A stretch of 64,000 nt of DNA, taken from NCBI RefSeq assembly GCF_000303155.1, contig NC_018719.1, positions 1,550,001 through 1,614,000 on the forward strand, written 5' to 3'. This DNA comes from Candidatus Nitrososphaera gargensis Ga9.2 (lineage in GTDB: Archaea; Thermoproteota; Nitrososphaeria; Nitrososphaerales; Nitrososphaeraceae). Shown here one piece after another: positions 61,561-63,716 of the stretch. Both the position numbers and the translations under genes were made by a program. The notes under the pieces are model-generated. The model did no database searches, had not been told where the DNA came from, and worked only from the letters and a program-made list of their open reading frames with translations. Numbering within the stretch: the first letter of the stretch is position 1; each line of letters opens with the position of its first letter.

Positions 61561-61927
61561 TAAGAAAAACATCTGGTATATCTTCTTGCGTAATGGGATG
61601 GGCATACTTGAATACCTCTCCTAGAAGAGGCTTAATTTCAGTTTAGGATGACCAGTCCCGTCATTTCCATTTATGAAACGTAATAGAGAATTGTTCCATA
61701 ATACTTATATCAAACTCCCTCCACGATTGTGGAGCTGGCAGGTTCTTGCTCAGTAAGGAAGCTTATGAGAAATTCATGCGCGATGTCCAAAAGCAAATAG
61801 ATGATGCTCATAGACGCTGTTAAGTTGGCTGCGGATTTTCACCTTTCCTGACAGATGTTAAGTTACGGGTGATATTTTGACGGGCAGAAATGGGTGTTAA
61901 GATAGGGATGAAAAGTTGATTGTCGGC
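61561..61927. other. Intergenic region leading into the left inverted repeat
   Basis: No complete gene is seen. A short open stretch at about 61739-61822 reads RFLLSKEAYEKFMRDVQKQI then DDAHRRC and stops at a TAA inside the repeat, so it may be the tail of a truncated gene. The repeat occupies 61811-61910. Confidence 0.45.
61811..61910 (+). repeat. Left 100-bp inverted repeat of a 1.7-kb element
   Basis: It begins TAGACGCTGTTAAGTTGGCT and ends GATAGGGATG. It matches the reverse complement of 63432-63531 at 80 of 100 positions by hand, without gaps. It is itself made of about 38-bp sub-repeats beginning GTTAAG at 61819, 61857 and 61896. Confidence 0.8.
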
Positions 61928-62834
61928 TCAGTCTTTATAGTAGCCGTGCAAGTCACGCCTGCCGCCACCGCTCCAGTTTACAGGCAGGTTAGGAATGGAT
62001 GGTTCGCTCAGACTTGCAAGGTCATAGATTACTTTTGTCAGATCATTTGATGGTTGGACATTCTTCATTATTTCCATAACATGAGATTGCAATGTTTCGA
62101 CCTGTTGCTTTGCTTTCTTTAGAATAACATCCTTATCCTGCTTGGGAAGTGGAACAAGAACATTATCTATGTCTTCTGATCGAATTGTTGGCGTAACAGA
62201 CCCAGATATGAATCGCCTTGTCAAAGCCTGACCTAATCGAGAGTTCATAACCTGTACAATGTACGGTGCGTATTCAGCATACTCCTTGTTGAGCTGTATG
62301 CGATAAACATGAGAAGAACATGCAACTTTTTCGTGTTTAAATTCATCTCTAAGTGTATCAATAAGCACCTTCGAGATGTAACAATAAGCTGCTGGCATAC
62401 CATCTTTGGTCAAAAGAATATCATTTTCAATAACTATAAAATCATCAGGCTCCTTCATTTTCTGACATTGAAGTAAATTTCTCAAATAGCGGATAGACTA
62501 CATTTGGTCTGATGTTGTTGCCCTCAATCAACGGTACATCGCCATCTTCAGTTGGCGAAGCTCCAGTTACTCTAAGTGAACATAGTTCTGAAAAGCGTTT
62601 GACCTCAACCACATCTCTATCTTGTAGTGCCTTCAGTGTCTTTAAGGCATTGAAGTATGAAGCAGACCAATAGTTGTTATCCAGTCTTTCATCTAATCTC
62701 TGAGTTAACGTAAACGACGAGTCCAGCCAGATGGGTAGTTTCTCTTCCAGTATTTTGACCTTGATTTTTTTCAGCTCGTCCTCAACATGATTTTTTGTTG
62801 ATGCTGCCATTCTTTTCACCAAGGTGGTCTCCAT
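61928..62834 (-). pseudogene. HsdS-like type I restriction specificity protein with a frameshift
   Basis: The first frame (62834-62445) ends SLRVTGASPTEDGDVPLIEG then NNIRPNVVYPLFEKFTSMSE. The second (62485-61928) continues DDFIVIENDILLTKDGMPAA, VYRIQLNKEYAEYAPYIVQV, ISGSVTPTIRSEDIDNVLVP and LPKQDKDVILKKAKQQV. These are the target-recognition and central helix features of type I S subunits or related N6 methylase helpers. The frames join at an A-rich spot near 62458-62465 where one base fewer restores the reading. It is short for a complete S subunit (about 300 residues, one recognition domain), and no hsdM or hsdR is near. Confidence 0.7.
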
Positions 62835-63019
62835 TTTTGCCAGTATTGGTAAACTGTTGTAAGGTCAGCATATCAAATGAAAAGGACTGCATCAAGGTCT
62901 ACTGCAAGGGATGGGTTGAAAAGCAGACTTGGCGCGAGATAAACGACATTCGCAGGATAAACGGCTTTGCGTGGCTGTCAAATGGCAAGGACTCATGCTG
63001 GATAAAACTCATTTCCTAG

Positions 63020-63199
63020 ATGCAGGTGATTCTTGGCATGGTTGTATCAGACAAGGAAGTAGTCAGAAGATCGAGAGAAACGATAGAGTTCCTCAAGGTA
63101 GAATCTATTGGCGGCGTTTGGAATACGCCGCAGCTGATCGATATGTTAGAGGACTTGTTCAAGGAAGATTCCAAGATATACAAGAATAAAGAGCGATGA
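63020..63199 (+). CDS. Possible 59-residue protein inside the inverted-repeat element
   Basis: It starts at ATG 63020, directly after a stop codon, with helical coding-like sequence (KEVVRRSRETIEFLKVESIG then VWNTPQLIDMLEDLFKEDSK). A preceding open stretch to 63019 (KDCIKVYCKGWVEKQTWREI then NDIRRINGFAWLSNGKDSCW) lacks a clear start and may be a fragment of another gene. No family is recognised. Confidence 0.45.
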   Translation: MQVILGMVVSDKEVVRRSRETIEFLKVESIGGVWNTPQLIDMLEDLFKEDSKIYKNKER

Positions 63200-63236
63200 A
63201 ATACTATTAGATCAGGATGCAGAGAACCCTTTTCCT

Positions 63237-63389
63237 CTATTTGTGAAATTCATTTCTGGCTATTTGCTCTATCTTCTTTATCTGCTCGCTAGTAAATCCA
63301 GCATCGTGAAGTCTCCATTTCATTCTGTTGATCCTATCATCTATGAACATCTGCAAGTACAACTCAGGCGGGAGAGATGCTTCTGGCAT
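63237..63389 (-). CDS. 50-residue helical protein
   Basis: From ATG 63389 to TAG 63237: ASLPPELYLQMFIDDRINRM then KWRLHDAGFTSEQIKKIEQI. The pattern of two amphipathic helices and the proline-led start look like real coding sequence. It lies inside the 1.72-kb inverted-repeat element. The function is unknown. Confidence 0.55.
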   Translation of the reverse strand: MPEASLPPELYLQMFIDDRINRMKWRLHDAGFTSEQIKKIEQIARNEFHK

Positions 63390-63431
63390 AGAAGTAATAG
63401 CCTAAGTAGTGGCTCTTAACCATATCTGTAT

Positions 63432-63531
63432 CACCCCTATCCTAACACCCACTTTTCCACGTCAGAAAATCAGCCGCAAGTTAACGCCCGGCTGGAAACC
63501 TGAAAATCAGCAGCCAACTTAACAGTGTCTA
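63432..63531 (-). repeat. Right 100-bp inverted repeat of a 1.7-kb element
   Basis: Read on the minus strand it begins TAGACACTGTTAAGTTGGCT and ends GATAGGGGTG. Its sub-repeats begin GTTAAG and GTTAAC 38 bp apart and then GTTAGG 39 bp later, the same phase as in the left copy. Confidence 0.8.
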
Positions 63532-63626
63532 TTAACGTTGTATTTTTATATTTGAACAGGCCTCTTTTTACCCATGGCAGCCAACAATGCGCCAAAAAGC
63601 AGGGTGGTTCCGATACCAAAAGGTAG

Positions 63627-63716
63627 CGGGCCCGGTGGGCTTCGATCCCACGACTTCCGGCTCTCTTCAATAGAATTTAGAAGGCAGGCGCTCTATCCAT
63701 GCTGAGCTACGAGCCC
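63627..63716 (-). tRNA. tRNA-Arg (UCU) with 15-nt intron
   Basis: On the minus strand the gene opens GGGCTCG and closes CGGGCCC, a complete acceptor stem with one G-U pair. The D arm is GCTC...GAGC and the T stem is GTGGG/CCCAC. The anticodon loop CTTCTA, with UCU as anticodon, is followed by a 15-nt intron after position 37, a canonical archaeal site. The anticodon stem CCTGC/GCCGG has one T-C mismatch at 29/41. CCA is not encoded. The mismatch is odd and could reflect decay or a sequence error. Confidence 0.88.

What the first reader, a model, noticed from the sequence alone, without database searches (positions are those of the whole stretch)
61811..63531. 1.72-kb element bounded by 100-bp inverted repeats made of 38-bp sub-repeats
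The two ends match at 80 of 100 positions in inverted orientation, and each consists of tandem units beginning GTTAAG at 38- and 39-bp spacing. Between them lie an HsdS-like gene with a frameshift and two small ORFs, but no transposase. It may be a non-autonomous transposon, a recombinase-bound switch or a novel mobile cassette.
Basis: seen in the sequence. Interest (0 to 1): 0.7.

Follow-up and report, generated by a model that had tools for sequence, protein, structure and literature searches.

The report
Remnant of a defence-gene-carrying archaeal transposon
The 1.7-kb segment between the two long inverted repeats is the shrunken, non-autonomous remnant of a transposon that once carried a type I restriction-modification (anti-virus) system, and complete relatives of it, with a transposase and defence genes between matching repeats, were found in other ammonia-oxidising archaea.

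Summary
Arms 61813-61915 and 63427-63529 are inverted copies (80% over about 100 bp, E=4e-19). Each has three units at 38/39-bp spacing, and the pair is unique in its genome. The arms are the terminal inverted repeats (TIRs) of a transposon. Three related 155/157-bp TIR-TIR elements sit at unrelated sites in a congener; two are identical and have 8-bp target-site duplications. Complete 5.3-7.1-kb elements with homologous three-unit TIRs exist in three other genomes, and a fourth element is cut by a contig end. Each encodes a 447-465-aa IS6-related transposase with N-terminal zinc fingers. Three carry hsdS+hsdM, and one carries ShosTA/PsyrTA-like genes. Window 62861-63019 encodes the last 51 residues of this transposase (75% identity), followed by a 59-aa gene (89% identity) that also follows it in the complete relative. 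The window element therefore looks like an internal deletion: left TIR, frameshifted 3' half of hsdS, transposase tail, small gene, right TIR. It lacks a target-site duplication, and its genome holds no full-length close transposase, so it is probably immobile. Non-autonomous transposon: supported. Inversion switch: not supported. The parent group (cargo-carrying, IS6-related, multi-unit TIRs) is not described in the papers I could search.

The parts
61813..61915 (+). Left terminal inverted repeat, three tandem units (61819, 61857, 61896)
   Evidence: homologous to TIRs of complete elements L140, L172, L173
63427..63529 (-). Right terminal inverted repeat, three tandem units (63523, 63485, 63446, read on the minus strand)
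61928..62834 (-). 3' half of a type I specificity gene (hsdS), broken by one frameshift near 62454-62464; read through, residues 36-249 match positions 238-442 of 461 of the MADS5 HsdS model
62835..62860 (.). Inferred internal-deletion junction between hsdS and the transposase tail; lost relative to complete relatives: hsdS 5' half, hsdM, transposase residues 1-399
   Evidence: inference from collinearity with L140 and L173
62861..63019 (+). C-terminal remnant (51 residues) of the IS6-related transposase; 75% identical to residues 401-451 of L140:14772-16127
63020..63199 (+). orfA, 59-aa accessory gene starting at the transposase stop; 89% identical over 55 aa to the ORF after the transposase in L140; dN 0.057, dS 1.66
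61805..61812 (.). Left flanking octamer TGCTCATA; does not match the right octamer, so no target-site duplication
63530..63537 (.). Right flanking octamer TATTAACG

Best explanation
The segment is an internally deleted, non-autonomous copy of a cargo-carrying DNA transposon. The ancestor, as seen complete in relatives, was TIR - hsdS(-) - hsdM(-) - transposase(+) - orfA(+) - TIR. The 38/39-bp repeated units of each TIR are most likely transposase binding sites, and the 8-bp target-site duplications are made on insertion by the IS6-type DDE transposase. A deletion inside the element joined the middle of hsdS to the last 51 codons of the transposase, removing hsdM and the catalytic domain, and hsdS then acquired a frameshift. 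Shown: TIR homology, collinear transposase tail and orfA, mobile TIR-TIR copies with target-site duplications in a congener, complete relatives with transposase and defence cargo. Inferred: binding-site role of the units, the single-deletion origin, and present immobility.
For: TIR pair. A model made only from window-type arms picks out the two ends of the L140 element as its top hits (20.7 and 19.3 bits against at most 7.5 in 40 shuffles), and a model from window-type arms found the same end in a genome search (E=4e-4). Elements in G014: 157 bp (two identical copies, duplications CTTTCAGG and CAAAAAAC) and 155 bp. Complete elements: L140 6.4 kb, duplication ACAAAATG, hsdS+hsdM+transposase; L173 5.3 kb, hsdS+hsdM+transposase; L172 7.1 kb, duplication ATACTGGC, ShosTA/PsyrTA-like cargo. 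L203: TIR, hsdM, hsdS, a transposase 91% identical to that of L140, and orfA, but cut by the contig end. Transposase tail in the window: 75% identity, E=6e-25 (genome search E=6.6e-21). orfA: 89% identity in the same place. Window and L173 both end hsdS about 10 bp inside the left TIR.
Against: The window copy has no target-site duplication. The hsdS half is only about 30% identical to the hsdS of L140, so the exact ancestor was not found. TIR similarity to the G005 and G082 elements is modest: 9.8 and at most 4.8 bits with the window-only model. No transposition event was observed directly.
Confidence: 0.9

Rival explanations
1. Composite element: two separately inserted short TIR-TIR elements came to flank, and may have mobilised, an unrelated hsdS fragment, like TIME-COMP structures.
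For: Short TIR-TIR elements with the same ends exist in a congener.
Against: Each window arm is a single three-unit TIR, not a complete two-TIR element. The transposase tail and orfA lie inside in the order seen in complete transposons.
Confidence: 0.05
2. Phase-variation switch: the inverted repeats let a recombinase flip the hsdS segment.
For: hsdS genes are known targets of such switches (own knowledge); the repeats are inverted.
Against: No recombinase and no second hsdS outside; hsdS is a frameshifted half gene without hsdM; the repeats occur elsewhere as insertions with target-site duplications.
Confidence: 0.02
3. The remnant has been kept for a function: orfA and/or the transposase tail is expressed, for example as a repressor or titrating factor against related transposons. 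This can be true together with the best explanation.
For: orfA is intact and its protein sequence conserved (dN 0.057, dS 1.66). C-terminal-only transposase pieces recur in G000, G008, G011, G013, G014, G015 and G020, and orfA-plus-right-TIR remnants occur in G222 and G020.
Against: The selection signal may predate the deletion. Some other C-terminal pieces contain stop codons. The C-terminal part is simply the coding part nearest the right TIR and the best conserved, so truncated copies would show it anyway.
Confidence: 0.08

Closest known systems
IS6/IS26 family, including archaeal IS6-like elements and their MITEs (PMC7986276, PMC6807381)
   Same: DDE_Tnp_IS240 catalytic domain above the Pfam cut-off; 8-bp target-site duplications; TIR tips with CTGTT near the end; MITE derivatives known
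   Different: Transposase 447-465 aa with SWIM-like and zinc-ribbon domains and a C-terminal extension, below NCBIfam's IS6 cut-off (106-110 against 125 bits); TIRs of about 80-100 bp made of repeated units instead of 14-20 bp; 5-7-kb elements with cargo instead of 0.7-0.9 kb
Insertion sequences of Thaumarchaeota as surveyed by Krupovic et al. 2019 (PMC6563490)
   Same: Same hosts; that survey counts 83 IS in Nitrososphaera gargensis and lists HsdM/S/R genes among integrated-element cargo
   Different: A term search of its text finds no SWIM-domain transposase and no MITE; IS-like transposons are described as having one or two genes, with no multi-gene IS6-like element in the section I read
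Tn7-like transposons carrying defence genes (PMC8649781)
   Same: Transposon with anti-phage cargo; repeated transposase-binding sites at the ends (the latter from own knowledge)
   Different: Single IS6-related transposase and 8-bp duplications; no TnsABC-type genes seen
Casposons
   Same: Present in the same hosts, long TIRs, multi-gene
   Different: Cas1 integrase and polymerase B in casposons; none among the ORFs examined of the complete elements here
TIME / TIME-COMP mini-elements (PMC13367494)
   Same: Non-autonomous elements made of transposon ends that can flank genes
   Different: Tn3-derived; here single TIRs flank and the derivation is an internal deletion

Membership tests
IS6/IS26 family | IS6-type DDE domain (PF13610) | tested here: met
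   Intact relatives 59.9-62.1 bits, cut-off 27
IS6/IS26 family | NCBIfam IS6 transposase model over its cut-off | tested here: not met
   106.2-110 bits in the three complete close relatives, cut-off 125
IS6/IS26 family | 8-bp target-site duplication | tested here: inconclusive
   Met in L140, L172 and two G014 mini-elements; absent in the window copy, L173 and the third G014 mini-element
IS6/IS26 family | Short 14-20-bp terminal repeats and 0.7-0.9-kb single-gene element | tested here: not met
   About 80-100-bp TIRs of repeated units; complete relatives 5.3-7.1 kb with several genes
MITE / non-autonomous derivative of this transposon group | TIRs homologous to those of an autonomous element | tested here: met
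MITE / non-autonomous derivative of this transposon group | No functional transposase but traces of the parent | tested here: met
   C-terminal 51 residues only, plus orfA
MITE / non-autonomous derivative of this transposon group | Mobilised in trans | not testable with these tools
   The window copy has no duplication; close mini-elements in G014 do
Type I restriction-modification system | hsdS with hsdM (and hsdR) | tested here: not met
   Only a frameshifted 3' half of hsdS in the window; hsdS+hsdM present in L140, L173 and L203
Casposon | Cas1 integrase | tested here: not met
   No Cas1 among the window ORFs or the tested ORFs of the complete relatives
Invertible (phase-variable) hsdS locus | Site-specific recombinase and alternative hsdS partner | tested here: not met
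   Neither is present in or beside the element

The most novel reading that the evidence does not exclude
The window element is a remnant of a previously undescribed group of defence-carrying transposons of ammonia-oxidising archaea. The group uses an IS6-related transposase with zinc-finger N-terminus and a C-terminal extension, recognises multi-unit TIRs, exchanges type I restriction-modification and ShosTA-like cargo, inserts next to other elements' ends to build tandem arrays, and leaves small non-autonomous derivatives and a conserved 59-aa accessory gene.
Probability: 0.5. Interest if true: 0.62.

Novelty: new variant of a known kind. Interest (0 to 1): 0.48.

Why it matters
It turns an unexplained repeat pair into evidence for a transposon group that moves anti-virus systems among ammonia-oxidising archaea. 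Defence-gene transfer in these archaea has mostly been discussed for integrated conjugative, viral and casposon-like elements. It also gives concrete complete elements and TIR models for finding more, and shows that small repeats in Nitrososphaera genomes can be derivatives of larger cargo transposons. The individual window copy is probably dead and by itself unremarkable.

Tried and rejected
DNA similarity of the segment to phage and plasmid records: none. Exact arm pattern in genome contigs and viral contigs: none beyond one Nitrososphaeraceae MAG and matches in unrelated bacteria that look like chance. Rfam: only a tRNA. Hypothesis that the G008 C21 IS6-like element (L110) was the direct parent: dropped, because its TIRs share only a short stretch with the arms and its transposase lies in another part of the tree. 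Empty-site search with joined flanks: the two flanks match separate places in relatives, so no occupied/empty comparison was possible. Close homologue of the hsdS half: none in the order sample or in plasmids. PDB gave only a zinc-finger match to the transposase. Composite-element and inversion-switch readings were considered and rejected (see rivals).

Full report
Setting. The window is positions 1550001-1614000 of a closed 2,833,868-bp genome. That size matches 'Candidatus Nitrososphaera gargensis' Ga9.2 from memory; the name is inferred. f9 is another family of the same order.

The observation. The inverted repeats are real and far beyond chance: 101 bp at 80%, E=4e-19 in a whole-genome search that found no third copy; 128 nt at 76% ungapped. 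Three units per arm, spaced 38 and 39 bp, are visible in the sequence. On the right arm the inner units read GTTAAC and GTTAGG.

The arms are mobile-element ends. In a congener (G014) three short elements consist of two such arms head to head. Two are identical 157-bp copies at 2364446-2364602 and 1270247-1270403, flanked by CTTTCAGG and CAAAAAAC respectively on both sides, i.e. 8-bp target-site duplications. The third is 155 bp without a duplication. Single arms occur in G008 and G020, and a diverged one in G020:C28. A model from these arms also found arms in f9 genomes (G184 E=4.6e-8; G260 E=4.3e-4).

Complete relatives. Around the G260 hit, both ends and everything between were recovered (L140:10671-17050): left TIR, hsdS(-), hsdM(-), a 451-aa transposase(+), a small ORF, right TIR, with ACAAAATG on both sides. 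Two further complete elements: G082 (L173, 5.3 kb, hsdS+hsdM+transposase, no duplication seen) and G005 in the same genus (L172, 7.1 kb, ATACTGGC duplication). G005 carries a DprA-like protein (ShosA model, E=5e-52) and a ComF-like phosphoribosyltransferase (PsyrT model, E=1.5e-13), plus three unassigned ORFs. G355 (L203) has the left TIR, a different hsdM/hsdS pair in the other orientation, a transposase 91% identical to that of L140, and orfA, and is then cut by the contig end. The closest transposases thus travel with different restriction cassettes.

Is the TIR link real? An HMM from window-type arms alone ranks the two L140 TIRs first among three loci (20.7 and 19.3 bits; best of 40 dinucleotide shuffles 7.5). 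A model that also included the f9 arms, but not those of L172 and L173, found both ends of each (E from 1e-5 to 3e-3). All aligned TIRs share ACRCTG-TAA-like tips, a GATTT block, and inner GTTAA-TT-GGG units.

The transposase tail. Window 62861-63019 matches residues 401-451 of the L140 transposase at 75% (E=6e-25; 73%, E=6.6e-21 in the genome search). The next ORF, orfA (63020-63199), is 89% identical to the ORF in the same place in L140, with dN 0.057 and dS 1.66. So the right half of the window element is collinear with a complete transposon. On the left, hsdS ends about 10 bp inside the TIR, as in L173. Read through its frameshift, the window hsdS matches positions 238-442 of the 461-position MADS5 HsdS model, i.e. 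the 3' half, whereas the L140 hsdS matches positions 14-415. The simplest history is one internal deletion with its junction in 62835-62860, plus a later frameshift; this history is inferred.

Is it still mobile? Flanking octamers differ (TGCTCATA / TATTAACG). The host's transposases of this broad class reach at most 36% identity to that of L140, and none is full-length with the C-terminal part; the other pieces are fragments. Trans-mobilisation is not excluded but seems unlikely.

What kind of transposase? DDE_Tnp_IS240 is above its cut-off; SWIM and zinc-ribbon matches are near or below theirs. NCBIfam's IS6 model scores 106-110 against a cut-off of 125. A 42-row tree groups the transposases of G005, G082 and G260 with full support; the C-terminal part also occurs in a second, neighbouring group (G014, G020), and the tree needs three changes for it, so its history is not one clean clade. 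Bacterial plasmid records hold only distant IS6 matches, at most 66-69% coverage among those listed and under 60% identity; phage records none. PMC6807381 already argues that archaeal IS6-like elements should be separated from IS6/IS26. The thaumarchaeal survey PMC6563490 reports IS families but, in the section and term searches I read, no SWIM transposase, MITE or multi-gene IS6-like transposon. Library searches for such elements returned none, though the library lacks most subscription papers and ISfinder itself was not searchable.

Wider group. Other IS6-like elements in these genomes, including two in the host genome (L119, L120), also have TIRs of roughly 45-85 bp, several visibly made of two repeated units near 38-40-bp spacing, with 8-bp duplications read in L110, L112, L115 and L120. 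This supports the architecture as general, but their relation to the window TIRs is by resemblance only.

Verdict. The missing transposase is present as a tail. The copy itself is a remnant; the interest lies in the parent group.

Noticed in passing
L140/L141 (G260:C17 25634-39676): Transposons stand end to end with the same octamer ACAAAATG between them: a GACACTGTTCAATC-type end, then the complete element, then a second hsdS/hsdM/transposase element. This suggests insertion next to resident ends.
   Followed up: partly
L024 and L025 (G014), L172 (G005:C44 9198-9216): Both duplication-flanked mini-elements in G014, and the G005 element, lie within about 15 bp of a rare motif TGTTAACTTATCGTTNGCT that resembles an IS6-like end (4 copies in G014 within 2 mismatches). 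Possible target preference.
   Followed up: partly
L172:2055-9184: Transposon carrying ShosTA/PsyrTA-like defence genes (DprA-like and ComF-like phosphoribosyltransferase) plus three ORFs without family matches.
   Followed up: partly
G000 (2678566, 2021317), G015 1986955, G014 529628, G013:C30, G008:C20, G011:C9, G020:C76: Several genomes keep only C-terminal pieces of this transposase, some starting near residue 390-407; unclear whether this is ordinary decay or a retained small protein.
   Followed up: partly
window 63020-63199: A 59-aa protein without a Pfam family, strongly conserved between families of the order and tied to this transposon's right end.
   Followed up: partly
L104-L109 (G014): Six copies of an IS6-like element of about 693 bp between the inner repeats, with GGCTCTGTTAACTTAGGG-type ends.
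   Followed up: no
L120 (G000:C1 about 1765947-1772877): A 6.9-kb element in the host genome with 54-bp identical TIRs, an IS6-like transposase and an 8-bp duplication ATCGCTCT; cargo not examined.
   Followed up: no
window 63627-63716 (-): tRNA gene with a probable intron 98 bp right of the element, found by Rfam but missed by ARAGORN.
   Followed up: no
window 61745-61822 (+): A short open frame (...KEAYEKFMRDVQKQIDDAHR...) runs into the left TIR and stops there; possibly a gene interrupted by the insertion (read by eye).
   Followed up: no
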